From Lota lota (taxonomy: Eukaryota; Chordata; Actinopteri; Gadiformes; Lotidae), in assembly GCA_026745465.1 (NCBI GenBank), contig JACYXH010000023.1, positions 62,001-126,000 of the forward strand: a stretch of DNA of 64,000 nt, given 5' to 3'. The position numbers and the translations under genes are program-made. The first letter of the stretch is position 1. Every line of letters starts with the position of its first letter. The notes beneath the pieces were generated by a model. It searched no databases. It saw only the letters and a program-made list of their open reading frames with translations, and was not told where the DNA came from. Positions 1 through 64,000 of the stretch are shown here, piece after piece.

Positions 1-16
1 CTCACTCACTCACTCA

Positions 17-668
17 CCAATTGTAAATCTAGATCTTTTTTTTTAAATGGTATACAATATGTATTATTATATTTCTGTCTCTCGTCAAATTTGGAACAGT
101 CTGGTTAAATTGGAGGAGGAGAAGGCCAGTATTTCTGCTGCGCATGAAGAGACCAAAACAAGGTTAGTGTCGCTCTCTCTAATTGTAAATCTAGATCTGT
201 TATTAAAAAATGGTACACAATATGTATTATTATATTTCTGTCTCTCGTCAAATCTGGAACAGTCTGGTTAAATTGGAGGAGGAGAAGGCCAGTATTTCTG
301 CTGCGCATGAAGAGACCAAAACAAGGTTAGTGTCGCTCTCTCTAATTGTAAATCTAGATCTGTTATTAAAAAATGGTACACAATATGTATTATTATATTT
401 CTGTCTCTCGTCAAATCTGGAACAGTCTGGTTAAATTGGAGGAGGAGAAGGCCAGTATTTCTGCTGCGCATGAAGAGACCAAAACAAGGTTATTGTCGCT
501 CTCTCTATTATTGTAAATCTAGATCTGTTATAAAAAAATGGTACACAATATGTATTATTATATTTCTGTCTCTCGTCAAATTTGGAACAGTCTGGTTAAA
601 TTGGAGGAGGAGAAGGCCAGAATTTCTGCTGCGCATGAAGAGACCAAAACAAGGTTATTGTCGCTCTC
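17..668 (+). repeat. 163-bp tandem repeat carrying a coiled-coil exon
   Basis: Four units of about 163-165 bp each hold one 63-nt exon plus its intron (TGTAAATCTAGATCT and CAATATGTATTATTATAT are in each). Exon starts are spaced 163, 163 and 165 bp. The following unit (exon 751-834) is older: it keeps 21 nt, one heptad, that the four short units lack. The array may extend to the left of the window. Confidence 0.9.
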
Positions 669-1014
669 TCTATTATTGTAAATCTAGATCTATTATTAAA
701 AAATGGTACACAATGTGTATTATTATATTTTTGTATCTTGTCTGGAACAGTCTGACAGAGCTCCAAACAAGGGTACAGCAGTTGGAGGAGCAGAAAGCCA
801 GCATTTCTGCCGAGTGTGAAAATGCCAAGTCAAGGTTAGTCTCTCTCGCTCTCTCTCTCTTACATACATACATACATACATACATCTATTGTAGATATAT
901 ATATTTTTAATGGTACACAATATGTATTAATATATTTTATTCTCTTGTCAACTCTGACACAGTCGGACAGAGCTCAAAAACAAAATGGCTGCCCTTGTGA
1001 ACGGGACCATGTGA
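100..1014 (+). CDS. morc3: MORC3-like copy 0, 3' end only (coiled-coil tail exons)
   Basis: This is the tail of a gene that starts before the window. Visible exons are 100-162, 263-325, 426-488, 591-653 (63 nt each), 751-834 (84 nt) and 963-1014, which ends in TGA. Each internal exon starts after AG, ends before GTTAGT or GTTATT, and is phase 2-2, so exons can be gained or lost without a shift. They encode repeats around [11 protein letters not shown], strongly heptad-like (21 or 28 residues, exactly 3 or 4 heptads). The last exon reads RTELKNKMAALVNGTM-stop. Assignment to MORC3 rests on near-identity to the tails of copies A and A2, whose exon 1 and (in A) ATPase exons are recognisable. No ATPase or CW part is visible here. 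Use of all the repeated exons in mRNA is unproven. Confidence 0.7.
862..884. repeat. (CATA)n microsatellite
   Basis: A short tetranucleotide tract in the last intron of copy 0, next to a CT-rich run. Confidence 0.8.
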
Positions 1015-1640
1015 ACTACGAGTGCAACATCATTGAGGGGATAATGGAACAGGTCCTCAGTAACAATGGTCCTACTTCACACTAGTACCATTGACCCATG
1101 TTGGTTACTACAATTATGGATGCAGAGAGAATGTGTAAATATCATGTTTTATATAGTGAAGGGACTATCATTGGAATCTATGTTTATAAAGCAGTTTGGG
1201 GTAAACTCCCCACCTATCTCCCCTCACTGCTTTCCAGGTAGATCAATAGATACACAGGTATACAGATAACACAAGGTCACAACATTCAATGTCCTTTAGA
1301 GTCCCACGGGTGCGTTTGGATTGTGGCAAAGACAGCGTTTAGCTATGATATACCGAGCAGTTGGCTAGGCTCCAGGATGACCTTGGCCTGAAGGAGTTAG
1401 TCCCCATTCCAGCTTTATAACCTTTTTTAAAGATTTTTATGCAAATGTTTTGATTACTCTTTCGTGTTTGGTAATTTAGTGTTTTTATTGATGATAATGT
1501 TTTTATGTCTACTGTTTGTAACTGCATTGGCATTGTTAATAATGTTCTGTAATGTAGGGCACTGCTGTTAGATAGAAAAAAGTTATAGATTTTATGAAAC
1601 ATAACATACATTTTATAGGTAAGATGGGACATATGGTTTT
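1015..1640 (+). other. 3' UTR / downstream flank of copy 0
   Basis: This follows the TGA of the last exon and is nearly identical to 14827-15370 (after A) and 24480-25050 (after A2). A 67-codon open frame (1066-1269) recurs in all three, but all three are recent copies of one sequence, so this alone does not show coding. No other gene is seen up to 1780. Confidence 0.6.
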
Positions 1641-4640: not shown

Positions 4641-7600
4641 ATGGCGGCTGGACAGACGGAACGCGGGGTCCCGCTGAGTACGGTAAGGTTAACATATCAT
4701 CGGTATCGATTGGTGGAATTATGCCGGTACTAATCTTAACGACATACCAGGGGCGAAATCGATCCATGATCACCGCAGAAAAGAAAGTGGGGCGTTCCGG
4801 ACGTAGCGGGCAACACTGCATTATTCCCAGAGCAACCAATGTCTTGTGTCGATAAAGTTTAAACCACACGTTTTAATGACAGTGAGCTTGTTAAAAGCAT
4901 CAGAGCACAATGTTCACCATGTTAATACCGTTGTCATATCGTTATTGTACTGCTAGTGTCAAGGCGCTGCTCCAGGGGGGAGGGGTGGGCGGATCGATCC
5001 CAAAATATCGATACTTCAGATACTACGTCTCGCTTTTGAAGATCGATTCTAGATTCAATAGGATCGATACCAGTTTCCGTTTCTCTCTTCTACGTCGAAC
5101 CCATTTCATAAAGAGTAGAACAAAAGCCAGGATACAATGAGAACGAGGCTCCATCAGTACTGAAAACAGGTTCCCGTTCAGTGGGGCATACGAGGTGGTT
5201 TCCGTTTTGTGACAAAGTCACATTCATTTTATTCCCACCAATGTCGAGCTTTGAAGGCTCTAGCCTGCGAATAAATCAGTTGAACCAATCCCATTCAGGT
5301 ATCTTTGTCATGACAGTCACCATGGTCACTGTACATGTTGTAGGACATGGCGAAGGTAACAACCTAGTTACTTTCTCACACAGTCCTCTCATTGCATCCA
5401 CAGTAAAGTGTCAGCTCCTCCGTTTTGGGACTCAGTGACTCTGTGGTCTCCTGCTGGTTATTAGGTGTTTCTGTCTACTATGTGCCTGCTTCTGTTGTGC
5501 CCCTGTCTACGCCCCTCACCTGTACACCCTGCCATTGTGTTTCCTTCCCTTTTTCCTGCTCACCTGTTCGCCATTATGCTAATTACTCAGCCTATTGATG
5601 TCCTGTGCTTTCAGTTCCTCATTGTCTGTTTGTTCTTATGTTTGCTCTTAGCTTACCTAGTGAGTTCCCTCTGCCCTGTAGTCTGCCTGCCTGCCTGCCT
5701 ATTTGATGCCTGCCTGCTGCCTGCCTGTTTGATTCCTGCCTGTTTTTTGGATTTGCCTACGGTTTTTACCTTTGCCTGCCCCTGGACTGCTCTACTGACT
5801 GTGACCTGGCCCTTTTCTTTGTGCAGATGTTTTGTGTTTTTGCATTCCTCCTGAGAAACAGGAGTTCATTTTTGTTATTGATTGAGCTGAACCCCTGCCC
5901 TGCCTCAAATAAATCCTTTGGACTTATTCTGCTTTTGGGTTCATATTTCACTGGCTTCCTGACAGTAAACTACATTCACAGACCTATAATTATCGCTATC
6001 TGTTATATGTATTGATCATTTATCTCGATAGCGGTCAGTGCTACAAGCCGATGTTTTCTTGCACTGCGGGACGTGAATATAGGTTGCTTTTGATGACATG
6101 AAGGTGTGCAGTTGTATCGCAACAGTTTCGTTTTTGGATGCAAGCTTTCTCTGAAAGAATAGCCTCATTTAGTAACCAAACAGGGAAACTACCTCAAACA
6201 TGAACGTCTCCAAAACATGGCTGTATTAAAGAATGCACACCCACTTATTCTAGTCCCCCTCATCCGCCAACTGCCATTCGCTGCACTATTTTACACTTGG
6301 ATTAAAAGGTGGAACTCCATTATAAATGAATCCTGATGTTTTGTCTTCCCACCAGCTACGCCAACAGGTCCCATTAACTCTTAAGTGAGAGTGTAGTCTG
6401 GTTTTTACTATTTAACATAATTGACAGACGTATAACCTCTTTGACAGACGTTTTTAGTCCCTTCCAATCTAAGGTCAGCCGGATCACGTTTGTTTTGGTT
6501 CCGCCACTCAGGTTGTTTCCAGTAGAGACCTATTCTGTGTAACATGCGCCTAAATATCCTTGCCCCCAGGAACATGATTGGTCAAAACTAATTTAAGGCA
6601 ACAGAATCTGAAATGCCCTGGTCACAGATTTGAGCTTGTCTAATTTGTGAGCCTACCAATGCACAAACTATATGTCCTGGTGGAGCCGGAATATCCATTC
6701 TGCAACAGGGAAAATACAGCAGGCCCAAGTCATACTGCAACTATTCAAACAAATCTATTAAACTATCAAACTTTTGTTTCTTTGCCATTATCTTAGTTAC
6801 GTATAACACATCTATCCATGAAGAGTGCTTATTATGTTCCCTGATCTCACGAAATAGAATGTCAGAACTTCAATACAAACGGAAGGAAACAATGGTCCTG
6901 GTTTTAGTCCTTGTCCAGTAAAGTTGGTTTCATATTTGATAATTGGTTGATATTCATTTTTATATTTTCAATAACTTATTTATCCACATATGAGAACATT
7001 GGTTAATAGTATTGTAATCGGAGGACGATGAGGGACAATTTACATCTTTTAATTTCCATTTCTGAGATACTTTGTTTTAATGCAAATTAGTGCCAATAGC
7101 TTTTCTATGTCAACGCTGAGGTCCAACATCCATTTTACTTTGCCATCAACATCTCAACTACAATGTACAGCAACAATTAGGTCAAAGATATGCTTGCATT
7201 TATTACAATGAAAACATATTCAACATTCTAATTTCAATGTGACGCAGAGGGGTCTAACCAACGTTACTATGTTGGGTCCCTCAAATTTGTTAATTCTTCC
7301 ATATTTCCCTTTCAGAAATATCTATTCCTTTTTTAATATTGTAAAACGCAATAGCTCTCAGACCATGTGACCCACTGAGGTCAAACCAGCTTTAATCTGT
7401 CCTTGTGGTGTAATCCCTTTAATTTATAATTGCATAATTGCAACATTCCATATAATTTTCTTTCTTCTTTCACTGTGAATATTGATGTCTGTGGGTCATT
7501 TAAGAGCTCTTTGAGCTATGTATACTGCTCAAAAAAATAAAGGGAACACTTGGAGTTACATTGTGTTGTTTAAGTGTTCCCTTTATTTTTATGAGCAGTA

Positions 7601-10600
7601 TATTTAGCAATATTCAGAAAGGAATATACATTTTCGAAAGGGAAATATGGAACATTTTAAAGTTGTAAATTGTTTCTGATGCAGACTATTGGGCAGTGGT
7701 CACTGATCCAGAGAGAGGACACCAGAGGCAGAGTAGTTTGGGGTTTGATTCTAAAGGTCTTAAGTGGAGCAAGCTTGTCATTAATGCAGGACAATTCATG
7801 AGAAAAGTGTTGAGCGGAGTCTGGGTCTGGCATAGAAGAGGTTCATTCAACTCTTGAATTCTGTAAATCATTGAGAAAGTCCCGGTCATTTTAGTTTTTA
7901 AAAATGTATTTTAGGATTGTTTTGGTATTTCTGATGCAGACTATTGGGCAGTGGTCACTGATATCCAGAGAGAGGACACCAGAGGCAGAGTAGTTTGGGG
8001 TTTGATAGTAAGAATGAGGTCTAGCAGTGTGGATTCATCAGGGTTTCTCATGTTTGGTCTTCTTGGTTTGGACATGAGTTGGGATAGATTTAGTTGTAGA
8101 CAGATGTCTTATAGCTTGTCAGAGTCAACCATAGATATTGATATCAGATATTTGATCCTGATGAATGTCCCTTCCCTTGAAGTAATTTTGTGTGAATCAC
8201 CCCGGTGTTGTGTGATCACTAATGAGCGTTCTCATTTCAGCTTAACCCAAAGTATCTCCACTCCAACTCTACCAGTCACACCTGGCCCTTCAGTGCTATT
8301 GCTGAACTCATAGGTGAGTCCTCCTGTAACTTTTGGTTTATGTGGCAGCATACATTAGTTTGAGTTTTTGGTTTGTAGAAGTGTGCTTTAAGTTGCCTAG
8401 AACCGGAAATTCACTTGACATCTGACAGAAGGCTAAATGTTTTACCAGAGACCTTCACAAATGCAGAGAATTTCTTTCTTCAAAATGTCTTTCACCTAAT
8501 TACAATATAGAAGCCCTTTTATGTTTGTATATACTTGAATTGAATCGTTTTTTCGTGATATTTTCCTTAATTCTTCCCGTAGACAACGCATACGACCCTG
8601 ATGTCAATGCCAAACAGATATGGATCGATAAGACCCAGATCAAAGACCAGGAGTGTCTAACCTTCATGGATAACGGAAACAGACTCAGCTATGACATGAT
8701 GCATCGGATGCTCAGGTGATAGTTGATTATTTACAATATCAATGATTATTTATAATATCACAACATCAGGGTATTCAGTTAATTCATGACCGTGTCGAGA
8801 CGTTAGTGGTTAATGCATGAATTTATTTTCCCTTTTCCCTCATAGCTTCGGATTCAGCGACAAAAAAGCTGTGGATCAAATACAACCCATTGGAATGTAT
8901 GGCAATGGTTTCAAGTCTGGCTCAATGCGTCTGGGCCAGGATGCCATCGTTTTATCCAAATCAAAGACTGACCTGTGTGTTGGCATGCTGTCACAGACTT
9001 ACCTAAAGAAGACCGGAGCCAAGCAGATCACTGTTCCTATCATCAGCATTAAGGAACCAGAAGCAAAACAATATATCCTTTTCAGCTTGTCAAATGGGTC
9101 TCAACTGTGTTCCAGGTCCTTGCTGTTGTGTTTTGGATCACATTTATCATGAAATAAATTACTGTGGATATGTTAATTAACCAATATTTGATTCCTTGGC
9201 TAGGGCCTTATTAGGGGATATTAGTTATATTTTATTTTAGAATTCTTTGGTTCCAGATGCTCCATATATAATATCCTTGTGCCCCTGTATAGACGGAGCT
9301 AGAGAAGTAGCTAGACCTTAACTTTCACTGGCTTTCCAAAATGTAATAATATTGTTCAGTTTGGATCTGGTTTCCCCTGCTATGACACCGATGTGAAAGG
9401 GGTCTGCTGGGTCTAAAGTTAGGAGAATATCGGTTATATCCACCAGGCCTAGTAAGAACTTCCTTGACCCGAGTGACTACTCAGTGTGTTGGAGGAGCAC
9501 AAGGCCAGTCTGAGGGCCATACTGGAGCACTCACCCTTCAACACTCAGGAAGAGCTGCTTACTGAGTTCCAACACATTGAGTCCACCGGCTCCAGCACCG
9601 GGACCCGGATCATCATCTGGAACCTCCGCAGGTCTGGGTTTATCCCCATGGTTACAGGCTCATGTGAAGGACCATTAACGCTTTAAGCCCACAGGACACT
9701 AAACAGGACATTAAACAGTCTATGGTCGGCACACAAAATAAGGTTTTAGAATATTTGGGGCCAAGATAGACCTATTGAGTCCTGTAATACAAAGCGAGCA
9801 ACAATATACTGCCTGCAGACATTAAAACTATATAATATGGCCTCTTTATCCATTGACCAATTATTACAAACATCATTGATTTTACATGAAAATATCTCAT
9901 ATACAAGCAAATTATGCTAGGTAAGAGGCTTAAATAATTATTGTTATTATGACTCATTTGAACTAATCAGGGGTCCTATGACATTGGTAGGAACCCTGAA
10001 GTTTTTGTTAGGATTATTTTGCCTAATCTACATGGGCAAAAGTTGAATAAATGTGCAGACTTTAAGAACTTTTAAAATTGGTAAGGGATGCAAAGGATAG
10101 AAATTCCAACAGGCTGCCATTTCTGCATGAAACTTTGTAGACATGCACCATTCTTCATGATTGTAGGGTACGCTGCTAGGCCCTAGCAGTGGGATGGTAG
10201 CAAGCAGCTGGTAGAGGTGTGGAGTGAACACAAAACAAGAACAATGTTCAAGGAATAAGCCCACAAAGGACAGGATTTAATGGCAACCACTTAAACCATT
10301 CAGAGGGCAAAATAACCCAGCAGTATTTTCCCCTGCCACCCTACACAACCTAAGCTCTCTCCCTAAATACAAACTGACCTGCACCATTCCCAATCCTTAA
10401 GGGCTGCCTTAAAGTATTCAGAATGTACTTCTCCTAAGCTCAACATATGTCAACAAACACGACGCTAATGCATCATGTTTACATTATACATTTGCATTCA
10501 ATAATTGACCAATAAGCTTGAGAAGTGTCTTAATTTAACAGGATCCCGGCCAGAGCCCCTCTCCATTCAGCTCCACTTGGTACAGCCCAATGAGGTCTAA

Positions 10601-12209
10601 ACAGGCACACCTGTGCATGGTTAACTAGTGAGGTAGATCATGTAGCCTCCTCACAACGATGAGCAACTTTCTCGCTGCAACCCATTTGGTCAGACCATTT
10701 TGAATTAATGCAATGACCACAACGCTGCCAAACGCCCACACACAAACTGGTTGAGCACTGGTGCTCTACAGTGGTAGAGCCATTCTATATAGTGCTCTAC
10801 AGCGGTAGAGCCATTCTATATAGTGCTCTACAGCGGTAGAGCCATTCTATATAGTGCTCTACAGCGGTAGAGCCATTCTACATAGTGGTATAGCTGGTTT
10901 GAGTCTGACCTTGACCAAACATATAGTGAGACATGGCATGAAATCAACTTTTTTTTTTACTATATTTATTTTTGAGATTACTTTGTTAATGTCTAATATT
11001 GATACATATTTAGACTACATACTATATAAAGACTATTGCAAAGACATTTAACCTTGGTTCATGAATTTGTATCTGCAATCTCTATTTCTTTATTCATATT
11101 TTCATTATAGGACATCTGCAGGACATATGGAGTTTGATTTCACCACAGACCTCTATGATATCCGCATTCCCTCTGATGTCCTTAAATCAACGACTGAACC
11201 AGACCAAAGACCAGAGCGATCAGACTCGTCCGTCCCTGAGAGTGACTTCTCGTTGCGTGTAAGTAGTAGCGACCTCGGCTGACCCCATGGCACACATAAA
11301 CAGCCTGTAGTTCTGGGGGAAGACCCCACATACCGAATGCAGAAAATGGGATCAGACGTTCATGATGCACCATTAACTGTGATGAAGATATTAAGATGAC
11401 CGTATTTCTGAGACCACAGTTTAACCCTTTGGTTTAAGTATGTTAATGTTAATGTTAACATTAACAACATCCCCATTTCAGACATGGGGATTTATAAGAA
11501 AACCTGATATCTGCATTGTAAAATGATATATACTTAAGCACTTTGTAAAGACCAAATAAATCAAATGTATTTACTGATAAATACAATAAAAACATTTCTG
11601 ATGCTTGACAAGCGACTAGATTTGATTTAATGGCTTATTTGCCGTTGTGTAGTGATGTGTACTTGTATGTGTATATGAAAGGTTGTATTTCGTTTTCTAT
11701 CTATACTTATGAATGTAGGCATACTGCAGCATCCTCTACTTGAAGCCCCATTTGCAGATCAACATTCGAGGACAGAAGGTGGAGACTCAGCTCATCTCCA
11801 AGAGCCTTGCAGATAGGGAACGGTACACCTTCAAACCCAATGTTGTGGTATCCTTTTCAACAGACACACAAACCTTCCAGCTCCTTCTTGCAAAGGAAGA
11901 AACCATTTATTAGTACAGTCTCTGCATTTAACCCAGGAGCAGTGGGCTGCCACAGTGTAGCGCCCGGGAACCAACTCCAGTTTTTAGCATGCTTGTCTTG
12001 GTTATGGGAAGGCCAGGAGCTAGTGGTCTGTGGTTATGTGTTATGGTGTGGGGGAAACCAGAGCACCCAGGTTAAACACAGTGGAAAACCCTCCTGATGG
12101 AACCCAGGACCTTCTGGCTGTGAGGCAGCAGTGCTAACCACTGAGCCACCGTGTCCCCCAACATCACAACATCCATCAGAGACAGATTCTTCACAACAGT
12201 CTTCTTGAC

Positions 12210-12251
<42 letters not shown>

Positions 12252-12935
12252 TTGGTTTATTCATGGCAGAAATGTTTTTCATTTTGTGAAGACTCTACAT
12301 CAGACTTCCAGGTCCAGATTGTTCCTTAAGTCCCGTTCTAGAAACAAGAAATCCCCATCACCTTTGGGTACAACAAGAAGAACATGGACCAATATGGCAT
12401 CATGATGTACTACAACAACCGACTCATCAAGGCATATCATCGTGTCGGCTGTCAGCTAAAGGTGAGTGTGTGCAATCATTTAAAATGTGCCTTTTTATTA
12501 GGTCTTATTATTCATACATTGGTGTTTGTTGTGGTAAACGTTGGTGTATGTGCTCCTAACAGGCTAACAGCAGGCTAGGCATCGGAGTCATTGGTGTGAT
12601 TGAGTGTAATTTTCTGGAACCGACTCACAACAAACAGAACTTCAACGACACCAATACGTACAGGTAAGGCCTGTACTGTAATGGTGTTCAAATCATGATC
12701 TCACAATCAGGAATTCATTTTTGACAGTTATCGTACTTTGTTTAGGTGTTGGTATACTACTTACTGTTACTATTTCGGCATTTAGCAGCCATTTTTCTAC
12801 AAAGCAACAAGCAGTGAATTCAGATGTCTTTATGAGGTGGAAGAGGTTAGGATGAGGCTCTAGAGTACCTACATGTACTCTGGTCAACCACCCTAACCAC
12901 TACCACTACTGTCCCTCTTATCAAGACACAAGTTT

Positions 12936-12996
<61 letters not shown>

Positions 12997-18400: not shown

Positions 18401-19591
18401 AACCACTGCAGGGCGGGTCTAAGCGACCGAGCGATAGAGGACCGTGCCACGAGCGTAACGAGAAGCTCCCCTTCTCTTTACAGACGAGAGACTGTAGGGA
18501 GAGAGCAGGGAAAAACCGGGGTCTAGGAAACTGGTGCATGAGGCCGTAGATAGGGCCTCGAGTCCCCAGCCCGCTCATGAAGCACACGGGGACGTCGCAT
18601 GGAGGCGGACGAACCAAGGCTATACTACGCCGCCCCACAACCACTTGGCTGAAGGGAGGGGCGAGGGAGCGTGACAATTATACACGTGGAGCACAAGGCA
18701 AAGCTGTGTAAAGATGTACTATCGTTTAGTCAAACAGACTTTATATCCTTCCATAACTTATATATAAAATATATATATTATGAGGGAAAAAAGAAGCAGG
18801 TCGGTCCTTCTGCTGCCTGGCGATGCTGCTGTTGGCGGCGTCGAAGAGGCGTGGTCTTGCTGCGGTGGGCGCGAAAATGGAAATTTTCTCCACGTCGTCA
18901 GGTCCACATAACTCGTTTCCGACTGTCATGGCCGACAGGCAGAGGAGAGCAGGTTATGTTGTTTACATCCGCGGCGCTCTGTGAGGCAGACATACGATCT
19001 GTCCCAGAGCGGCGAGCTGTTTTTGGGGACGGTCGGAAGGCAGCGGCTTTACGTTCAGACGCCACACGGCGTCTGGACAGAGGAGTGCTGCTAGGGGGTG
19101 ACTGCAAGCGAGGTATCCCACTCGCCTGTGTGGTGGTCCACCCCTCCACCCTGCTAAGACAGTGAAAAAACCTTCACTGGCGCCTTCAGGGAACCGTGCA
19201 ACTAGATCAGCGAACGGCGTGGCTCCGCCGGGGGGGCGGCCATGGCGTGCTCCGCACCCAGGCAACGAAGCACGAAGCGGGCTCGTTGCCTGGTGGAAGC
19301 GCCGCCGGTCAGGAGGAGCAGAGAGGCCGTTCCTCTGCGGGTCCGTCACGCCGCCGCTGGATTTCTTCATATTTGGTCGAAGTAGTAGACTGGTAGATGA
19401 CTGGTTCAAGCAATTGCTGAAAGAAAAGAGGACGAACGCTGCCGTGCGCCGCGTTATATACACGGTGCTGTGGGGAATGTGGGCGGGGCCCACGTTGATT
19501 GGTGCATTGTTGAAATTGTCAGTGCACGTGAGTGCGCGCACGGGACAAGCCCATAAGGCGAAGCCTAGACAGCGTAGCCTACATGAAGTAG
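15445..19591 (-). mobile_element. DIRS-type tyrosine-recombinase retroelement (broken fossil)
   Basis: Inverted terminal repeats are visible: the left end (about 15484-15645) is the reverse complement of the right end (about 19435-19587), sharing CCCATGCGCGCAC/GTGCGCGCACGGG-like and GGGCCCCGCCCAC/GTGGGCGGGGCCC motifs. The left end also has a 55-bp hairpin pair (15442-15497 with 15678-15733). On the minus strand there are RNase H-like (VLIRTDSVSAVAYIHKRG), reverse-transcriptase-side and recombinase-like (IQSACAPSTSSLYAAK) parts in DIRS order. Coding parts are heavily broken. It splits the 5' flank of copy A2 about 48 bases before its ATG and has no clear target duplication, as expected of DIRS elements. 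Its GC content is much higher than that of its surroundings. It is younger than the duplication that made A2's exon 1. Confidence 0.8.
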
Positions 19592-19618: not shown

Positions 19619-19631
19619 AGTTTCAGTTTCC
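19619..19631 (+). promoter_or_regulatory. ISRE-like motif before copy A2 ATG
   Basis: AGTTTCAGTTTCC is an exact match to the ISRE core AGTTTCNNTTTCC and ends 7 bases before the ATG. The DIRS fossil separates it from the rest of the ancestral 5' flank. Whether it lies upstream or downstream of the transcription start is unknown. Confidence 0.5.
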
Positions 19632-22680: not shown

Positions 22681-22931
22681 TTGTTCAACCTGACATTTAC
22701 AGGAATATATATTTATTTGTTTATTACAAATTAAAATTTACAATACACTAAAATAATAATAATCATGTATTGAATTACTTATTGAATTATATTACGTGTG
22801 AATAGTGCTGCTAAGAGTACTAAAACCATCTTTTGATCATGGCAACCCGACCTCCACCCGAACACACCACAGACACCAAGAGAGGGAACCTCTGGTAAAA
22901 TGTGTTTTTGTATTATCTGGGTGGTAAATAC

Positions 22932-26516: not shown

Positions 26517-26597
26517 CCATTTCCTTCACCCGTAAACCATACCATAACCCTAACCATAACTGGGTTGATTGGTTGCTAGCGTAAAACCCAATGAGCT

Positions 26598-44910: not shown

Positions 44911-44912
44911 AC

Positions 44913-50900: not shown

Positions 50901-53900
50901 ACGAGCAGATTGTTGTTTAAGATGGGCTCAATTAATATTGTTATTGTCAATAGAAATCTTATTTTTACTATAATATTGATATATGCATAGATAACTACCA
51001 AGGGAGTTTTTATAAATTATTATTTAGAATGACTACATAAAGACTATTGAAAGGACATTAACCGTGGCTCATCTATTTGTAGCTGCTATCTTTGTCTTTG
51101 TTTTCATTATAGGACGTCTGAAGGGAATATGGAGTTTGATTTCTCCAAAGATGATATCCGTATTCCCTCTGATGACGTAGACTCTTCAGACTCGTCCGTC
51201 CCTGAGAGTGAGTTGTCGTTGCGTGTAAGTAGTATTTACCTCGGCTGACCCCATGGCACACATAAACAGCCTGTAGTTCTGGGGGAAGACCCCACATACC
51301 GAATGCAGAGAATGGGATCAGACGTCCATGATGCAACATTAACTGATCAAGATATTAAGACGTCAATCCAAGCAGGTGGTAAATGAAGGCCTTGTTATAT
51401 AGACAATGCCACGTTGGCACCTTGACCCAAGGATATGTTTAACAAGTGGTTCCAACACAGGTTCTCTACAAAAAAATGAAACCCTAACCCTAAGACGAAG
51501 AGTTACAAGTCAAGATGGGTTTATTTTATAACAACAAAGACCTGGGGAAGAGGAATAAACAAATGAGTACAAAGAAAGCAAGGAAACATACAAAGACAAC
51601 ACTGACGTTCAGCTACAGATAGCTGGTCGAGCCAACGGAGCTAGCTCGAATGACAACCGTAAAAGACAGCAGTATAAATCCCTGTAAAATCGTATCAAAA
51701 CAACGGAAGCAAAGTGGCAGTGACTAATCTAAAAGCAAGGGAACAAAATGAAATTCTACAACCTTTGTACTTTACAATTAAACACGACTACATAACCTTT
51801 ATTTTAATACTCAAAGGGGAGATCAGAAGACAGGTACACACAGAGTTACGTGCGAGCACAGCACACTCAACACCTGTAGTGTCAGGCGTGTTACATGCTG
51901 ACATATAAATAAAATACGTCGTTCAAAGCACACCACGTACCGTGGTAACCCGAGGGAACACCTATAATACAGAGTGGGGCTCTATCTACACCTATCTACA
52001 CCTTAATTACGTCACTACGGTGGCTTGGTCAAAAGAACCAGGATTCTACCTGGTAACATCAGTATTTCTAAGACCACAGTTTAACACTTTGGTTTCAGAA
52101 TCCCCATGAAATTGGTTTCATGGGGATTTATAAGAACCTGATGTCTGCATTGTAAAATGCTATACGCGCTATATATTAAAACCACATAAATAAAATGTAT
52201 TTACTAATAAAAACGTAATAATTAGTGAGAATATTTTTTTGTTTAGTTGCTGTTGTATTTGGGATATGCACACTTGTGTCTATGAAAGGTTGTATTTAGT
52301 TTTGTATCTATACTTATGAACGTAGGCATACTGCAGCATCCTCTACATGAAGCCTCGTATGCAGATCAACATTCGAGGACAGAAGGTGAAGACTGAGCTC
52401 ATCTCCAAGAGCCTGGCCCTCATCGCAACGGATATCTACAAGCCTAAACTTGTAGATGACCAAGGGAAACCTGTGGTATCCTTTTTGTCTTCTTAATGAA
52501 GAAGAAAAACAACGTTGTTCTCTGCGTTTATCCCAGTAACAGTGGGCTGCCACACAGTGAAGCATCTGGGATCAACTCCAGTTTTTAGCAGGCATGTCTT
52601 TGTTATGGGAGCAGGAGCTAGTGTTCTGTGGTCATGTGTTATGGTGTGGGGGAAACCGGTAGCCTGACATCACAAGATGAATTCGTGAATGCGTATTAGT
52701 CTGGAACCTCTCGGTTAGTTTTCGACTTCCATTCATTCCATTCCAATCAGAGCAACTAAACATATGAATCATCCGTGGCAGCCATCTTGGTAGTTTATGG
52801 TCCCCTAGGGCGCTCCTCTGTTAAGTCATTGTATTAAGCCCGCCCTATATTAGATAAACGGTTGTGATTGGCCCGACCAGGGTCAGGTATGCTGGAAATC
52901 TGTCTGAATGGGAGGGGGGGCAGACACATATGCCAGAGCTAATAAAACATGAGCTCAGTTTATTCTGGCTCCTAGGCAAGGAAACCAGAGCACCAGGGGT
53001 AAACAGTTGAAAATCCTCCTGACGGCAATGGTTGGCAACCCAGGACCTTCTGAGGCAGCAGTGCTTACCACTGAGCCACCATGTAACCCAACATCACAAC
53101 ATGCATCAGAGAGACAGATGCTTCACAACAGTCTTCTTGACCAGTGTGTGTGTGTTTGGTTTATTTATACATTAAATGTTTTTCATTCTGTGAAGATTTA
53201 CATCAGTCTTCCTGGTCCAGAGTCTTCCTTAAAGAGCCAGTTATATGTTTGTCAACATAGTACTCTATGCCATTTTATCACTGTTACTGAAATAAGTCCC
53301 CAACTTAGAGGAAAAAAAGGGGTAAAATCCTATGTTTTTGCCGTTATCCCCAAAACACTATGTGAACACTCCCCTCTGCTGAACACAGGTGGCGTTCTTT
53401 TCGTGACGTCAGACTAACTTTTCCGAGGTAGTCTGACGTCACGACCAAGGGGCCCCGGCGGCGTGGTCTGTGTGGACGTGTGGAGCTTTGTCTGGGCATC
53501 GGTTGACTGCAGTGTCCCCCGAGAAAGTTGGGCTTTTCGGACACCTATAGTATAGCGCTATGGTGTGTGTGGATGGTGAAGCTCCATCTGAGCAGCGATT
53601 TATTTAATGTCCGCGTACGGGGGGGGTTAGGCTTCCCGGACACCTATAGTATATCGCTATGGTGTGTGGCGCATTTTGTATACAACATCGCTTATTATAA
53701 CGCTCATAACAGTTACACAATGACGGTACTAAAAAGGTATCGTAAAGTTGGCGTGGGTCGTAACCATGGGGATAACACGCCCCCGTCTTTCCTAAACTCT
53801 CAGCTGATTTTTATTTATTTATTTTTTATCACATAGTGTTCGAATTGCAGCTGAAACAGTGCGTTTACTGGCTCTTTAAGTCCCGTTCTAGAAACAAGAA

Positions 53901-56900
53901 AGAATCACCTTTGGGTACAACACGAAGAACAGGGAGCAATATGGCATCATGATGTACTACAACAACCGACTCATCAAGGCATATCATCGTGTCGGCTGTC
54001 AGCTAAATGTGAGTGTGTGCAATCATTTAAAATGTGCCTTTTTATTAGGTCTTATTATTCATACGTTGGTGTTTGTTGTGGTAAACGTTGGTGTATGTGC
54101 TCCTAACAGGCTAACAACAGGCAAGGCATCGGAGTCATTGGTGTGATTCAGTGTAACTTTCTGGAACCGACTCACAACAAACAAGACTTTGAGAAGACCG
54201 ACAAGTACAGGTAAGGCCTGTACTGTAATGGTGTTCAAATCATGATCTCACAATCATGAATTCGTTTTTGACAGTTATCATGCTGTGTTTAGATGTTGGT
54301 TAGTTATTTACTATCAGCCCATCTATTCTGCCTGCTGGTTTATTAATCAGATGGTGTTGGGAGCACAAAGTGAAAGGTCTACCAGGGTAAAGAAACAATT
54401 TAGTTGTAATGCAGGTCTACAAACATTAATGCACATTTGCAAGTGAAACATTTAAATCTGTATGTATTAGTATAATACTTACTATTGCTATTTCGGCATT
54501 TGGCAGCCATTTTTCCACAAAGCAACAAGCAGTGAATTCAGATGTCTTTATGAGCTGGAAGAGGTTAGGATCTGGCTCTAGAGTGCCTACATGTAGACTG
54601 TCTTTATTGGGGTTTGAGCCCAGAACCTCTGGTCAACCACCCTAACCACTACACTGTCCCTCTTATCAAGACACAAGTCTGACTTTTTATGTTTGTTTTA
54701 CAGGAACGCTATCAGAAATGTGGCAGAAAAGTTAGAAGACTACTGTAAAGAAATTCGGTTCAAGAGAAAGAAGAGCAACCTCAGCGATAACGTGCCCGTT
54801 GAGGAAACAGAGTGAGTCCACAATCACAGCGTTTTGAGTACTTTAAGTATGGTCATAATAAAGTCCAAGTTACCTGTATGATCTTTAATGGCTACAGCTA
54901 GATGTATCTCATGTTAACTGTTAGAACTTTATTCATTCACTGCACCCTCATACTGTGATACTTGTGGTTTTGTCAAGTTGAGCATCCCAACGTTGTCTAC
55001 TGTCACTGGAGGCTCTTATGAGGACGTGGCTGATAATTGGAGTGGTTCTGTGTTCCTGTGTTCTACAGAAAACGCCCGGATCAGAACTGGGCCCATTGTG
55101 ACGAGTGTCAGAAGTGGCGGAAGCTGCCGGATGGAATTAACACGGAGCAACTTCCTGAAGAGTGGTTCTGCTACATGAACCCCGACCCTCAGTTCAGGTC
55201 AGGATAGCTAATGGTTCTGGGTTTGATCCCCGATGTGGACACACTGCCAGTAGGCGACTTTACCAAGAGGTCTTTGGGCATCAAGATGCCTTAATGCCAA
55301 TCTATATGAATTAACTATAAGTCGCTCTGGATAAAAGCGTCTACTGAAATACTAAATGAGCATAGACATTTTCAGCAACATGTGCCTTCCTTGAAATGAA
55401 GGGATAGTTTAAATCCATATGCATCCACCACCACAGTACACACAAGCCACCTGTACATTTAGATTGGTAATTAAAAATGTATGTTAAAATATATCATTGT
55501 TCTTTGAAAATCCAAGAGGATTATTGGCATATTGAATGATGAATGCAGATTGAAATAATTAGCTCTAGGGGACATAATCATCAGTATAACATTTATATTG
55601 TTATACATTCACATCTCATCTCATTCAGGAGCTGTGAGACGATGGAAGAACCAGAGGATTCTGATTCTGAGCAGCCCACAAACCTGAAGACCTATAAAAA
55701 ACAGTAGGCTCCATATTTAGCATTACTTCTTCAGTTAGCCTGGTAAACTAACTCGACTTTTACGTTTTTTCTCAGTCAAAATCAAAGGTTATTCAGAATT
55801 CAGAATAGTACAGGTCACCTGTATGTGGTCTTATGGGGACATCCAGAACACTTTACATTGACTGACCTTGGTGTTTCTGACAATTGTATTGTTTATGTTA
55901 ACAGGGAGAGGGAGGACAAAAAGAGACAAGATGAGATGGAAGAATTTAAAGAGGTAAAGAAAATTTCTTCAGATATACATCATATTATACTGTATGTACT
56001 ATTGTTTGTACAAAAAATAAGAATTAAAATGCTTGATTATATTGTACCATAATCATAATAATGATTGTTTATTACATACTTATGTAATAAAAGCACTATA
56101 GTAAAAGTCTTTTTTTATCATGTGTCTAGTTTCAGGAAGAGAAAAGGAAACGCATAAACGAGACCCTCAGAAGAAAGAAGGAGGACGCCGAGAGAGCGTT
56201 GAGACAAAAGGTGTGTGGTGTGGATGAAGGTGTTTCTAGTTCTGCCTGACATTTACAGAAATACAAATTATAATTAATGTATCGAATTACATATTGAATT
56301 ATATATTACATGTATATAGTGCTTCTACGTTAATACAAAAAACATATTTTGATCATGACAACCAGACCTCCACCCCGAACACACCACAGACACCAAGAGA
56401 GGGAACCTCTGGTAAAATGTGTTTTTGTATTATCTGGGTGGTAAATACTTAATTATTACCTCATCTGTTTTCTTCACGTTCTGTTGTTATTTGTTTTGTT
56501 TGAGTAACAGTTGGTACAATATTTAATATAATATTTCTCTAGCACGCAGTCTGACTACTAGCAGCAGTCATCCGGTAATAATGGATGAAGTCTCTCTGTC
56601 AAAAAACCCCTCAAGGTATGACTGCCTTTTACCCCCCAATGATGTTTCACTTTCACTTTATCATCTTTGAAAATATGATCACGTTAATTTTCTTTTTACA
56701 TAATTATTTTGTGAACTGTAGGAGCAAGAGGCCGCAGCCTACGATTCCACAAAGCAAATCAAAAATACCAAAGAGAAGTAGTGAAGAGAGAAAGTCAGAC
56801 ACACCTATGAGCCTGAGAAGCCATGCAGCCTTGGAGGCGAGATCTACAGGAAATGATGTCATGGAGGAGATGAGGGACACAAGCGCCCAGATGCAAGGAC

Positions 56901-57576
56901 CACAAGGGAACGATGAGGAGGAGATGAACCTCAGCACAGCGGCTAACGATGGAACTCAAGTGATGGAGGAGGGAATGATTAGCATCATCCAGGCCCAGGA
57001 ACAGCAAGACCGGCTCATGGAGCTCCTGCAGTCTGTGGGCAAGGAGAGAGACTCTTTGAAAGAGAAGGTTAAGGAGCTCCAGGCACAACTAGACGTGGGG
57101 GAGAAGCAGTGTGCAGTCTGTCAGACAGCCAGAGAGAAGGCAGAGGAGCTGAGCAGAGAAAAAGAGAGGTTACTGGAGGCCCATTCCAGACAAAACCAGG
57201 AACAGGTGAAGCAAATTGAAGACTTGACCAACGAGATACAGAAACTACGCTCACAGGTATACTAGTTGGATTTAATAAGCTTTTCAGTGGCCAGTTTAAT
57301 CCTGAGTTTCTCTGTGAACCTGACAATAAAGTACATGAACTTGAGGGTAGGAAAATAATCTTGTTGCAATGAAATGTGTCTTGTGTAGATATTTTTGGTG
57401 AAGAATGATTGTGAGAAGGCCTGTGAAGCCCTTTGAGACCACAACCGTGATGGAGTTTTATACAAATCAAATCAACAAGACTTGTTAGTTGTTAGAACAT
57501 CAAACACCGTGTCTTTCCCCATTAGGTGAAGCAGTTGGAGGAGGAGAAGGCCAGCCTTTCTGCCCTGCGTAACTAG
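44913..57576 (+). CDS. morc3: MORC3-like copy C, intact GHKL ATPase with CW finger
   Basis: Exons: 44913-44954, 49288-49360, 49628-49760, 49884-50110, 50538-50688, 51113-51224, 52326-52475, 53892-54008, 54110-54210, 54704-54811, 55069-55197, 55629-55703, 55905-55953, 56136-56210, 56366-56411, 56616-56643, 56722-57256, 57526-57576. All phases join: 2202 nt, 733 residues plus stop (human MORC3 is about 940). AELIDNA (35-41), DNGNG (68-72) and [10 protein letters not shown] (101-110) are the GHKL ATP-binding motifs. The S5-like second half follows ([37 protein letters not shown]). The CW finger (408-451) has [21 protein letters not shown] and RSCE; in MORC3 it reads H3K4 methylation. A coiled coil fills about 625-715. 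MORC3 acts in the nucleus in chromatin silencing and antiviral defence. The donor of exon 56616-56643 (GTTTCA) is weak, and intron 7 has a transposon in its branch site. Confidence 0.85.
45709..46186 (+). mobile_element. Solo LTR in intron 1 of C, 3'-truncated (fossil)
   Basis: The same LTR as 5442-5964 in copy A. Its 3' part and the next roughly 700 bases of intron are missing relative to A, the break lying before TATGTCCTGG. Confidence 0.55.
46187..48080 (+). other. Intron 1 of copy C, AT-rich
   Basis: Collinear with 6665-7620 of copy A and then with 62731-64000 at the right edge. No gene or clear element is seen, only diffuse internal repeats such as GTGTCTAATTACA. Confidence 0.6.
48088..48368 (-). 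mobile_element. Solo LTR, reversed, in intron 1 of C (fossil)
   Basis: The reverse complement matches the LTR at 3468-3803 along its length with moderate divergence (GGCCGAGTCTGATTGGA and CACCACCCTG are shared). No internal region. Confidence 0.6.
48380..49265 (-). mobile_element. LINE fragments, antisense in intron 1 of C
   Basis: On the minus strand 48988-49266 reads [19 protein letters not shown] (endonuclease end), 48663-48878 reads [17 protein letters not shown] (linker before the reverse transcriptase) and 48380-48620 resembles the start of a reverse transcriptase. The frames are broken. The order agrees with one decayed LINE; Rex1/L2-like is a guess. Confidence 0.65.
51362..52060. mobile_element. 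Copy C-specific insertion in intron 6, possibly a solo LTR (fossil)
   Basis: About 700 bases sit between GATATTAAGA and TATTTCTAAG, which are nearly adjacent in A (11386) and B (33724). It has TATA- and AATAAA-like motifs on the minus strand but no coding part. The class is not settled. Confidence 0.5.
52658..52979. mobile_element. Copy C-specific DNA element in intron 7
   Basis: 322 bases inserted inside the shared SINE, with GGAAACC on both sides (52651-52657 and 52980-52986); copy A has one GGAAACC at this site. The 7-8-bp duplication fits a hAT-like element. TIRs are weak. Confidence 0.65.
53233..53875. mobile_element. TTAA-target non-autonomous transposon in intron 7 of C
   Basis: The TIR AGAGCCAGT pairs with ACTGGCTCT, and TTAA flanks both sides (53229-53232 and 53876-53879). 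Copies A and B have a single TTAA here, within TTCCTTAAG. TTAA targeting fits piggyBac or Kolobok. There is no transposase frame. Confidence 0.85.
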
Positions 57577-60059: not shown

Positions 60060-60060
<1 letters not shown>

Positions 60061-62730
60061 TCCAGGATGGGATCATTGATCCTTTATCGGACAAGGCAGA
60101 CGACCATAGTCTGAACGATGCATTAGAGATAGGAGGGCTTTGGCTTTTCATAAGGTGTGAACATGTTTGTTCTTTCTTTCACTGCACATTTACAATCATG
60201 TCACAAAAATTGAGAACCCTCAATCTTTGTGGGGTTCTCAAGACCTGTTAGTCTGAGGGGAATCTGTTGTTGGGCTGTGAGAGAAAAGAAGGGCCATTTG
60301 GGGCTGGAGACCGAGGTCTGGCAGGGAGCAGGATGAAGGTGAATACACATAAATGAACCGATCAACTCCTGAAGAGTAGTGGAGGGATAGAGACTGATGT
60401 TTGGCAGGGAGGGGGATTAATAACAGGATGAAGGCTAAACATATTTATCAACAAAAGGTGGGGGTCAGAGACAGGGCTCTGGGAGGGAGGGGGATGTAAT
60501 CAGGAAGGTGTAACCATATCTAACTGTTAAGCAATTAATACAATCCTCAGAAGCACTGTCCTAGGTGCACTGTGTATGATTCTGTGGTATCTAAAGGAAC
60601 GGACTTCCCTGATTGAAAATTATATTCATACGATTGTTTAAATTAGTGTATAATCTCATGGAAATAAGAATTGTGTTTTTGTCACCATCAAATTAACCCT
60701 ATACATCTACGTTGCAAGCGGGTCGTCTTCCACGGAGCCCGCCATGATGCACCGGCATGTTACTACAGTACCCCAGAAAGGACAGAAAGCTCTAGAGAAG
60801 ACGTGTTTTAGATTGTAAAGATACTAACTATCTTACTTGTAAGCTATTGCCCGTAGTTGACAGACTAAATACCTAATTAAAATTATAAAACTATCAAGGA
60901 ACATCATCACTTGACACTTTGCTACTACGTAGATGCTGCCATTGACTGTGACTTAATTTGGAACAGTACAGGCCACCGTAGCTTCTCCCACGTTGTTTGG
61001 AGAGGTTAGGAGAGGGAATTCAGTTGGTTGCAATCTGAAACCTCACCGCTAGATGCCACTAAATCCTAACCACTGCACCTTCAAAATGTTCTGAAGAGCA
61101 TAGATTATGTATGATCCATCAGTCAAATGTTTATTTTTGGGTCTGGGCTGTATGAATAAACAAAAAGAATTGCAGTACTTATAATCATTAGCTATTGTAA
61201 TGTATATTTATTCATGCAACAGCATAGCCTACATGTTTAGACTAATAAGAGACATTTTAAAGTGGCAATGTGTAATATACTGCTCAAAAAAATAAAGGGA
61301 ACACTTGGAGTTACATTGTGCTGTTTAAGTGTTCCCTTTATTTTTTTGAGCAGTATATTTTAACCTGCTCGTAGCTTACAATAACCTGGACATATCAGTA
61401 TTCAATGCTGATCGATAGTGATTTCAATAATGTTAGCAATAAAATCACATCCTTTAACATGTACATGCTTCAAATGAAAAATTCAGAAGTAAAACAGATA
61501 GAAAAAGAAACATAGCCAGACATAACAAAAGGACATAAAGCATCAGAGACAATCAGACATCACTGAATAGACTTTTGATGAAAGTTTATATTCTATCATT
61601 TGGTCTTATGAGAGGGTGGTGAGGAGCAGTATGTAGAAAAAGCCTTCAAAAGAAAGGGCAAGGAAAAGGTCCCATAAGGTATTGTTATTGATTACCAATC
61701 ATATCTAGATAGTCTGCTGTGCACCTACTGTACAACACTGACTTTACTTGTACTTTGTTAACGTTAGTTCAATTGATATGGAGTTGAGATGGAGGACATT
61801 TCTAACATTTCTCTGAGTCTCACCATCCACAACCCCAGTGTATGCCTCGAGTTTGGCTGGAGCTGTAATGACTGGCGCACTAAGACGCTGGCACACTCCA
61901 CTCATGACGTTAATTTTAGCATCGGTCGACGATTAAGAACAATTTACATTCTGATTTACATTTGAGAGATACTTTGATTTAATGTAAATAAGGGCCAATA
62001 GCTTTCCTGTCATTGCTGAGAGGTCCCTCATCCATTTTATTTTGCCATCAACATCTCAACTACAATTTACAGCAACAATTATGTCAAAGATATGCTTGCA
62101 TTTATTACAATGAAAACATATTCAACATTTTAATTTCAAAAGGTCTAAAATATTCCCAGATTGAATATCTCTCAGACCATGTGACCCACTGAGGTCAAAC
62201 CAGCTTTAATCAATTTTTATGGTGTAACCCCTTTCATTTACAACTTTTCATCATTCCATATTTCCCTTTGAAAATGTATATTTTATTCTGAATATAGACC
62301 TCTGGGCTCTAAGGAGCTCTTAGGAAATAAGGAAAGATGAAAAGTTGTAAATTGTATAGGACACATCATAGAAGAGATTAAAGTTAGTTTGACCCCTCTT
62401 GGTTACATGGTCCGACCCCTAACCCAAGTCACACTGAAAGAAATGGGAGAAAGGTTTACTTTTAAGCTGTTAAAGTGAAAAATTGTAAGATGTGCCTCTA
62501 TCGGCTGCTTACATTTACTCAACATAATTAATAAAACAACATTGCAACTACTGTTGGTCTTGACGTGGCCCCGCCCACTTGCTGTTGGTCTTAACATGGC
62601 CCCTCCCACTTGCTGTTGGTCTTAACATGGCCCCTCCCTCTTGCTGTGGTTGTCAGCAGTCACCAGCAGCCAAAGCCAACACTGGCCCTTCACTATACAC
62701 ATCCCATCACAAGTGGGAGTGTCCACTTAG
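60060..62730 (+). repeat. Intergenic flank module, copy 3 (leads to copy D)
   Basis: Collinear with 1780-4390 and 41940-44655, with the TIR element at 60563-61081 and the 31-bp repeats at about 62566-62645. It stops at GGGAGTGTCCAC, about 240-260 bases before where exon 1 would be, so promoter and exon 1 are missing. Confidence 0.85.
61278..61355. mobile_element. 78-bp palindromic TA-target MITE, second copy
   Basis: The same element as 7523-7600. The matching sites at 3050 and 43226 are empty with a single TA, so it inserted after these modules separated. Confidence 0.85.
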
Positions 62731-64000
62731 TGCAAATAGCTTTCCTGTCAACACTGAGATGTACAACATCTATTTTACTTTGCCATCAACATCTCAACTA
62801 CAATTTGGTCAAAGATATGCTTGCATTTATTACAATGAAAACATATTCAACATTCTAATTTCAATGTGACGCAGAGGGCTCTAACCAACGTTAAACTATT
62901 CTATGATGTGTCCCTCAAATTTGTCCATATTTCCCTTTCAAAAGTATATATTCCTTTTTTAATATTGTAAAATGCAATAGCTCTCAGACCATGTGACCCA
63001 ATGAGGTCAAACCAGCTTTAATCTATCCTTATGGTGTAACCCCTTTAATTTACAACTTATCATTTCATATTTCTTTCTTTCTTCTTTCATTCTGAATGAC
63101 ATCTGTGGGTCATTTAAGAGCTCTTTGAGCTATGTATTTAGCAATATTCAGAAAGGAATATACATTTTTGAAAGGGAAATAATGGATAGATTAGATTAAA
63201 GATTAAAGTTAGTTTGACCCCTCTGGGTGACCTCTGGGTAGTCTAATTAAGCTATCATAGGCCCATGTTGGCAGCATTAAATGTGTCTAATTACAGCATC
63301 GTTTGGCAGTAAGCGTCTAACTAGCATATTTTGGATGTGATATGGCATAGTATTTGATGTGGATCATGCACAATGGTGTCTAATAGTGTGTTAGGATCTC
63401 CTATTTGGTTTCTAATAATATATATAATATATCTATAGTATAATTTGGTATAATAGTGTCTAATTACAGTATATTTGTGATCTAATATGGCATTATATGT
63501 GGTTTCTAATCACAGCATAATTTAGGTGTATGGTGTCTAGTTAAAGTATAACTGTGTTTATTATGTTATATTCAGGCTTTTGTCCGAAGCGACTAACAAC
63601 CATTCATACACACGGCGAGCAGTTAGGGTGAGGTGTCTTGCTCAGGGACACCTCGATACTCAGCTAGGAGAAGCCAGGGATCGCACTAGCAACCTTCCGG
63701 CTACAAGTCAACCCGCTCTACCACCTGAGCTACTGCCGCCCAATTGGCTCTTCTTTAATAAAGAACATATTATTTCTCAGTTTTGTCAAATTTTATATAA
63801 AGTACAGCTTCTTATTATGTCTTATTAGTGTACCATAAAATAAAGTGTGACCAGAACAATTTACATCCTTTGATTTCCATTTCTAAGATACTTTGTTTTA
63901 ATGCAAATAAGTTCCAGGTACGAATATTTAATCTTTTTTCCCATCGAAATCCAAAAGGGAATAAACGATAAAACAGGTCCATTTTCAGTTTTTCTGTACT
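62731..64000 (+). pseudogene. Intron-1-like sequence of a further MORC3-like copy D (exon 1 lost)
   Basis: The sequence is collinear with intron 1 of copy C (about 46600-47900), for example CAATGTGACGCAGAGGGCTC at 62862. It directly follows the truncated flank module. No exon lies in the window. Whether ATPase exons follow beyond 64000 cannot be seen. Confidence 0.6.
63575..63742 (-). mobile_element. tRNA-headed SINE fragment
   Basis: Read on the minus strand it starts GGCGGCAGTAGCTCAGGTGG with an A box, then a B-box-like part and GAGGTGTCCCTGAGCAAGAC, a common teleost tRNA-SINE layout. The matching place in copy C (about 47395) lacks it. Confidence 0.75.

What the first reader, a model, noticed from the sequence alone, without database searches (positions are those of the whole stretch)
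1..64000. Tandem, fast-changing MORC3-like gene array in a fish
At least six units (0, A, A2, B, C, D) of one gene follow each other in the same direction, each with a different fate: full domain (C), CW-less (A), headless (A2), frame-shifted (B), exon 1 lost (D). Human MORC3 is a single gene that silences chromatin, restricts herpesvirus and represses IFNB1. Expansion with rapid domain loss is the pattern seen in host defence families. The antiviral role here is inference.
Basis: partly seen in the sequence, partly recalled or inferred. Interest (0 to 1): 0.8.

Follow-up and report, generated by a model that had tools for sequence, protein, structure and literature searches.

The report
Interferon-motif MORC3 gene array in fish
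A chromatin-silencing, virus-restricting gene that is single in humans has been copied about eight to ten times in a row in what looks like a fish, most copies next to an interferon-response DNA motif, with copy number differing between the two versions of the locus in the same genome.

Summary
The window lies in a 203-kb contig (C23) with 8 MORC3-type ATPase heads. Contig C22 is another version of the same locus, with 10 heads: two 3-kb flank stretches differ by 0.3% and 1% in substitutions. dop1b lies on one side and chaf1b on the other, as in human, and no other MORC3-type ATPase was found in the genome, so this is the ancestral MORC3 locus, amplified. Unit 0 is the tail of another CW-less copy. 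In the 8 heads on C23, exons 1-10 show no stop and one frameshift; omega is near 1.

New: the perfect ISRE core AGTTTCNNTTTC occurs 4 times in the window, all beside exon 1. Over both contigs 13 of 17 exon-1 copies have one, at -20 and/or about +430. Expression and antiviral action remain untested. Best reading: an interferon-responsive birth-and-death family of MORC3 silencers with CW-bearing and CW-less forms.

The parts
1..1082 (+). 3' end of unit 0 (CW-less; its exon 1 is at C23:53731, outside the window), with a tandem array of 63-nt coiled-coil exons (100-162, 263-325, 426-488, 591-653) and an 84-nt one (751-834); repeat period 163 bp
4641..4682 (+). unit A exon 1 ([16 protein letters not shown])
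5072..5083 (+). unit A perfect ISRE core in intron 1, +431 from ATG; the ISRE at -20 is lost by a 7-bp deletion
8241..13113 (+). unit A exons e2-e10 (8241-8313, 8583-8715, 8846-9088 with a downstream donor, 9485-9631, 11111-11258, 11719-11847, 12342-12461, 12563-12663, 13006-13113): GHKL ATPase and S5; GHKL motif DNGNG reads DNGNR
13475..14662 (+). unit A tail: e13-like exon 13475-13505 joins e10 in frame (my reading); no CW exon; last coiled-coil exon 14604-14662; exact C-terminal splicing not resolved
15479..19583 (.). Insertion with inverted ends (15479-15656 and 19583-19411) ending 55 bp before the A2 ATG; DIRS-like by recalled resemblance only, three ORFs tested without Pfam match
19619..19630 (+). 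unit A2 perfect ISRE core, -20 from ATG
19639..19680 (+). unit A2 exon 1
20410..24540 (+). unit A2 tail without e2-e11 (headless): e12 20410-20484, e13 20679-20727, 87-nt phase-0 coiled-coil exon at 20960 and in a 293-bp array (21689, 21982, 22275, 22568), terminal exons to about 24540
27852..27863 (+). unit B perfect ISRE core, -20 from ATG
27872..27913 (+). unit B exon 1
30960..36390 (+). unit B e2-e12 including CW (e11 35753-35881); e5 (32233-32380) has a 1-bp insertion
36841..37164 (-). DDE_1 transposase fragment inserted between B e12 and e13
37486..41467 (+). unit B tail (e13, e14, e15 modules, e17)
44913..44954 (+). unit C exon 1; the ISRE at -20 lacks one base
45343..45354 (+). unit C perfect ISRE core in intron 1, +430 from ATG
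49288..54811 (+). unit C e2-e10 (GHKL ATPase, S5)
55069..55703 (+). unit C e11-e12 (CW zinc finger)
55905..57576 (+). unit C e13-e17 (coiled coil) to stop; total frame 746 aa
60071..64000 (+). sequence between C and D and the start of D's intron 1; the segment that holds exon 1 in C (44660-46601) is missing at 62726/62727

Best explanation
The single vertebrate MORC3 gene, between dop1b and chaf1b, has been amplified in tandem in this genome into a birth-and-death family. Shown: 8 and 10 ATPase-bearing copies on two versions of the locus, open ATPase frames in the copies read, CW-bearing and CW-less forms, exon-array growth in the coiled coil, and an ISRE core beside most first exons. Indicated, not proved: exchange of segments between units. 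Inferred: interferon signalling (IRF/ISGF3 on the ISRE) induces many copies at once. Their products are nuclear GHKL ATPase clamps that silence invading DNA or retroelement chromatin and/or damp interferon. Copies with CW are autoinhibited and released by H3K4me3, as in mammals. Copies without CW would lack both that brake and that chromatin anchor, and so act as differently targeted or constitutively released forms. Having many variants would make it harder for one viral antagonist to disable all of them.
For: MORC3 identity: 591 bits to a MORC3 structure versus 470 to MORC4; Pfam HATPase_c_3, Morc6_S5, zf-CW. Locus: Dopey_N on the left of both C22 and C23; CAF-1_p60_C on the right of C22, in a stretch collinear with C23; human order DOPEY2-MORC3-CHAF1B (PMC9996016 passage). 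No MORC3-type ATPase elsewhere in two searches, which score only the best candidates. ISRE: 4 in the window versus shuffle mean 0.20, 0 of 100 shuffles reaching 4; 0 of 1582 permuted motifs hit all 4 units; on C23 8 in total, 7 beside exon 1, 0 of 100 shuffles reaching either; ISRE joined to the ATG context 8 times in the genome, all in the array. Coding constraint: no stops seen in e1-e10 of 8 heads, one frameshift; indels up to 60 bp in 4 pairs: 2 exonic (both B's) and 88 intronic. CW autoinhibition of MORC3 is published (PMC7596504 passages).
Against: Omega near 1 also fits relaxed constraint. B is frameshifted and A carries DNGNR. The -20 ISRE is broken in 9 of 17 copies, and 4 of 17 have neither ISRE. 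The ISRE copies descend from about two ancestral motifs, so they are not independent. No expression data. A published fish MORC3 acts against interferon.
Confidence: 0.6

Rival explanations
1. Neutral or nearly neutral tandem duplication: copies persist by redundancy and are decaying, with no selected multiplicity.
For: Omega 0.97 (ML) and 0.82 (NG86 pooled); B frameshift, A2 headless, D without exon 1, A motif change, ISRE broken at -20 in 9 of 17.
Against: No stops in e1-e10 of 8 heads with dS up to about 0.15; exonic indels nearly absent in the 4 pairs aligned (2, both B's) against 88 in introns; [15 protein letters not shown] invariant in 8 of 8.
Confidence: 0.2
2. Interferon-feedback module: extra copies serve to restrain IRF3 and interferon rather than to restrict virus. 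(Overlaps in part with the best explanation; the odds are not exclusive.)
For: Fish MORC3 lowers IRF3 and interferon and is induced by infection (PMC10775979, passages); ISREs would close a negative feedback loop.
Against: Does not predict CW loss or patchy replacement; tested only with the gene of another fish.
Confidence: 0.15
3. Transposon or retroelement silencing arms race, with interferon control secondary.
For: Mouse Morc3 silences endogenous retroviruses through its ATPase cycle and Daxx (PMC8516933, passages).
Against: ISREs point to induction rather than constitutive germline use; no germline data.
Confidence: 0.1
4. Assembly artefact: one locus duplicated in silico.
For: C22 and C23 are two versions of one locus, so copies must not be added across them; C21's end matches C22 with no substitution; u1 and B on C23 are only 0.7% apart over 3.1 kb.
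Against: Eight heads inside one contig, 27 of 28 pairs at dS 0.025 or more, with unit-specific deletions and insertions; the C22 and C23 flank stretches differ by 0.3% and 1%, as alleles do.
Confidence: 0.03

Closest known systems
MORC3 (single-copy, human/mouse)
   Same: GHKL ATPase + S5 + CW zinc finger, C-terminal coiled coil (weak profile match here); same neighbours DOPEY2 and CHAF1B
   Different: 8 and 10 tandem copies on two versions of the locus, CW-less and exon-1-less forms, exon arrays in the coiled coil
MORC3 of the teleost Miichthys miiuy (PMC10775979)
   Same: fish MORC3 tied to viral infection and interferon
   Different: described there as a gene on chromosome 11 with 19 exons; no array in the passages seen, and the words 'paralog' and 'copies' do not occur in its text
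MORC4 (structure 7k7t)
   Same: same domain order
   Different: clearly weaker match (470 versus 591 bits)
Tandem interferon-stimulated defence families of vertebrates (recalled, e.g. IFIT, fish TRIM clusters)
   Same: tandem birth-and-death with interferon motifs and copy-number difference
   Different: here a chromatin ATPase is amplified; no listed paper of the held library described this (lists partly cut)

Membership tests
MORC3 | GHKL ATPase with N-box, DxGxG and GxxGxG motifs | tested here: met
   Pfam HATPase_c_3 in C and A; AELI and [15 protein letters not shown] in 8 of 8 C23 heads, DNGNG in 7 of 8 (A has DNGNR), GTRII[IV]WN in 7 of 8 as read (B's e5 was cut before it)
MORC3 | S5 domain after the ATPase | tested here: met
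   Morc6_S5 1.3e-41 in C, 7.5e-41 in A
MORC3 | CW zinc finger | tested here: met
   met for C (zf-CW 9.6e-16) and for 12 exons on C22/C23; not met for A, u2 and u8 on C23, so those are MORC3-derived but not full MORC3
MORC3 | C-terminal coiled coil | tested here: inconclusive
   only a weak coiled-coil profile match below cut-off in C; heptad-like exon arrays
MORC3 | closer to MORC3 than to MORC4 or MORC2 | tested here: met
   591.6, 470.4, 231.6 bits for C
MORC3 | DOP1B-MORC3-CHAF1B synteny | tested here: met
   Dopey_N and CAF-1_p60_C at the two sides; human order
MORC3 | nuclear bodies, SUMO, Daxx, silencing activity | not testable with these tools
   needs cells
Interferon-stimulated gene family | ISRE near the promoter | tested here: met
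   13 of 17 exon-1 copies with a perfect core at -20 and/or about +430; binding not tested
Interferon-stimulated gene family | induction by interferon | not testable with these tools
   no expression data
Rapidly evolving defence family | omega above 1 / positive selection | tested here: inconclusive
   omega 0.97 (ML), 0.82 (NG86 pooled); replacements cluster, but synonymous differences cluster too
Rapidly evolving defence family | copy-number difference between chromosomes | tested here: met
   10 versus 8 heads on two versions of the locus; that these are two haplotypes is inferred

The most novel reading that the evidence does not exclude
The single 'insured' antiviral repressor MORC3 has become, in this fish, a haplotype-variable, interferon-driven arsenal in which CW-bearing (autoinhibited, H3K4me3-released) and CW-less (unbraked) chromatin clamps are produced together, and segments are shuffled between copies. 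Antagonism of any one copy would then be buffered or sensed by the others.
Probability: 0.3. Interest if true: 0.82.

Novelty: new variant of a known kind. Interest (0 to 1): 0.62.

Why it matters
MORC3 is a self-guarding antiviral repressor in human cells: viruses that disable it trigger interferon (PMC13373173 introduction). A natural array with CW-plus and CW-minus copies, and with ISRE present or absent, gives a ready set of variants to ask what the CW brake and interferon control do. It also makes a direct test possible of whether the human self-guard logic evolved from, or away from, a multicopy weapon. The copy-number difference between two versions of one locus suggests that it is still changing.

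Tried and rejected
Assembly duplication was considered and rejected for the units inside C23. Adding copies over C22 and C23 was rejected, since these are two versions of one locus. The idea that D's loss of exon 1 is only the window's edge was rejected: no e1 lies between C and D on C23. A shared exon-1 deletion in D and the C22 unit with e4 at 99259 was tested on one 1.5-kb stretch and not supported: it did not align to D's junction region but to other intergenic stretches. A single clade of CW-less copies: the codon tree groups u2, A and u8 (no support values), but the e2-e5 tree places u8 with the C22 head at 117692, which I pair with the CW exon at 126545, and A with C22_191260; read as exchange between units. 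Positive selection: not shown. Rfam and tRNA scans of the window: nothing. The automatic exon table flagged D e8 and u8 e7 as out of frame because it picked neighbouring splice sites; D e8 was re-read from its sequence, u8 e7 was given the length of the other units, and both then translate openly. Its e14-e16 rows are unreliable for most units. Full C-terminal splicing of A, A2 and B was not resolved. Structure prediction was not used, because the proteins are spliced. Species not identified.

In one search B's e5 was used as its two ends, skipping the insertion; B's e5 was cut after 29 codons, and e4 was cut at its common end in all units. Of 10 C22 heads, 5 were held for the e2-e5 tree. The indel count used 4 pairs among A, B, u1 and u9 only.
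Full report
Observation. The 64-kb window holds repeated collinear blocks, nearly all in one orientation. The ATPase exon at 49884 matches MORC3 structures best. I built unit C from exons with AG/GT boundaries and obtained one open frame of 746 aa over 18 exons, with Pfam HATPase_c_3, Morc6_S5 and zf-CW and a best structural relative MORC3 (591.6 bits; MORC4 470.4, MORC2 231.6). Heads e2-e10 also occur in A (8241-13113) and B (30960-35495). A lacks CW exons. A2 has exon 1 and then only e12 onward. B has one extra base in e5. D lacks exon 1. Unit 0 is the end of another CW-less copy whose head lies 1.4-8.3 kb upstream of the window.

Genome context. I read all of C23 (203,497 bp). It holds 8 heads (u1, u2 = unit 0, A, B, C, D, u8, u9) plus two headless tails (A2, and e10-e17 at 159249). 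The e4 exon occurs 18 times, 8 on C23 and 10 on C22, and no match elsewhere was scored (at E up to 0.001; with e2-e4 at E up to 1; the tool scores only the best candidates). Exon 1 occurs 17 times with up to 3 mismatches, 8 and 9. Of 15 CW matches in the genome 6 are on C23, 6 on C22 and 3 elsewhere. Outside the array, 1 of 54 S5 matches lies on C453. CW-less heads are u2, A and u8 on C23 (3 of 8); on C22 4 of 10 heads have no CW match before the next head (not examined further).

Two versions of one locus. Two 3-kb flank stretches of C22 align end to end with C23: left 30 substitutions in 2993, right 10 in 2992, plus gaps. The left side of both contigs holds dop1b (Dopey_N). The right stretch of C22 holds chaf1b (CAF-1_p60_C), and C23 is collinear there. 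Contig C21 ends inside dop1b and matches C22 over 1500 bp with no substitution and two gaps, while C23 differs at 7 sites. So C21-C22 and C23 look like two haplotypes of one locus with 10 and 8 heads; this is inferred from about 7.5 kb of flank. Human order is CBR3, DOPEY2, MORC3, CHAF1B (PMC9996016, passage). This is therefore the ancestral MORC3 place. Close pairs between versions: the last unit (u9, 98.2-99.6%), and C22's CW locus at 55448 with u1 or B (98.8-99.0%). The seven other C22 loci compared were at most 97.6% to any C23 unit in long matches. In the e2-e5 tree of 13 heads (5 of 10 from C22), u9 and C22_204451 pair with support 100, u8 and C22_117692 with 100 but 3.8% apart, A and C22_191260 with 84, D and C22_99259 with 64. 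The order of these pairs differs between the contigs. The interior of the array has turned over faster than the flanks.

Interferon motif. The perfect core AGTTTCNNTTTC occurs 4 times in the window against a shuffle mean of 0.20, and 0 of 100 shuffles reach 4. All four lie beside exon 1: -20 from the ATG in A2 and B, +431/+430 in A and C, where the -20 copy is broken by a 7-bp or a 1-bp deletion. Of 1582 permuted motifs none hit all four units within 600 bp, 5 hit two and 10 hit one. On all of C23 there are 8 perfect cores, 7 beside one of 8 first exons and one at 191580; 0 of 100 shuffles reach either number. On C22 6 of 9 first exons have a core. Together: -20 intact in 8 of 17, about +430 in 6 of 17, at least one in 13 of 17, none in 4 (C22 36341, 47877, 64558; u8). 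These copies descend from few ancestors, so the independent events are about two, and the counts overstate the number of trials. The 25-base ISRE-plus-ATG pattern occurs 8 times in the genome, all in the array, and 0 times read backwards. MORC3 is in a table of core vertebrate interferon-stimulated genes (PMC5747502, passages). Whether an IRF complex binds here is not shown.

Constraint and change. Over e1-e10 (386-402 codons for full heads; 383 for B, cut in e5; 388 for D, without e1) none of 8 heads has a stop, and only B has a frameshift (two splice sites set by hand). Exonic length differences among the heads other than B's are multiples of three. In four pairwise alignments among A, B, u1 and u9, indels up to 60 bp were 88 in introns (25 multiples of three) and 2 in exons, both B's insertion seen twice. 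Exons are roughly a quarter of these spans, so about 20 would be expected if indels fell evenly (my arithmetic). Omega is 0.97 by ML and 0.82 pooled by NG86; single pairs run from 0.65 to 1.86; the window's three heads alone gave 0.65-0.80. Replacements are clustered (0 of 2000 permutations as uneven), but so are synonymous differences (3 of 2000), so exchange of diverged segments may explain part of the pattern. The [15 protein letters not shown] motif is invariant in the 8 heads. A has DNGNR where the other heads have DNGNG.

Forms. Loss of e11-e12 keeps the frame, because e10 ends and the e13-like exon begins in the same phase in A and u2 (my reading); u8 has a different downstream exon, also in frame by my reading. 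In mammals the CW domain of MORC3 holds the ATPase autoinhibited until H3K4me3 binds, and guides it to chromatin (PMC7596504, PMC8516933, passages). CW-less copies should lack both functions; this is inference. Coiled-coil exons of symmetric phase are amplified inside genes: 87-nt exons with a 293-bp period in A2, and 63-nt exons with a 163-bp period in unit 0.

How it most likely works. Interferon induces the ISRE-bearing copies; their products act as GHKL clamps on chromatin of DNA viruses or retroelements and may also restrain interferon genes. Human MORC3 does both (PMC13373173, introduction). A fish MORC3 lowers IRF3 and interferon (PMC10775979, passages), so the net effect could be feedback rather than restriction. 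Multiplicity and CW loss would vary the targets and the brake. Shown: anatomy, locus, motifs, open frames, copy difference between the two contigs. Inferred: induction, silencing, benefit of multiplicity.

Novelty. Searches of the held library for MORC3 with tandem, teleost expansion, fish interferon, morc3b, self-guard, MORC3-like, synteny, MORC family expansion and CW autoinhibition listed no paper whose title or shown abstract describes a MORC3 gene array. Some lists were cut, and most subscription papers are not held. MORC3 itself and tandem interferon-gene families are known, so I file this as a new variant of a known kind.

Noticed in passing
window 36841-37164, minus strand: DDE_1 (pogo/Tigger-like by recall) transposase fragment between B exons e12 and e13.
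   Followed up: no
window 15479-19583: 4.1-kb insertion with inverted ends directly before A2's promoter stub; three ORFs tested without Pfam match; DIRS-like only by recall.
   Followed up: partly
window 21651-22686 and 19-742: Two intragenic exon arrays (293-bp and 163-bp periods) of coiled-coil exons in symmetric phase.
   Followed up: partly
C23:127133 (D) and C22:98666: Exon-1-less heads on both versions of the locus; D's e2-e10 and e16-e17 read openly, of the C22 one only matched exons were seen; the stretch before the C22 head differs from D's. How they are transcribed is unknown.
   Followed up: partly
window 9068-9088, 31786-31807: The e4 splice donor of C is absent in A and B; a GT 18 bp further keeps the phase in 5 of 8 C23 heads.
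   Followed up: partly
window 26593-29573: Several minisatellites (25, 34, 51, 31 bp) around B's first exon and intron 1; human MORC3 acts at tandem repeats (PMC13373173 abstract), not tested here.
   Followed up: no
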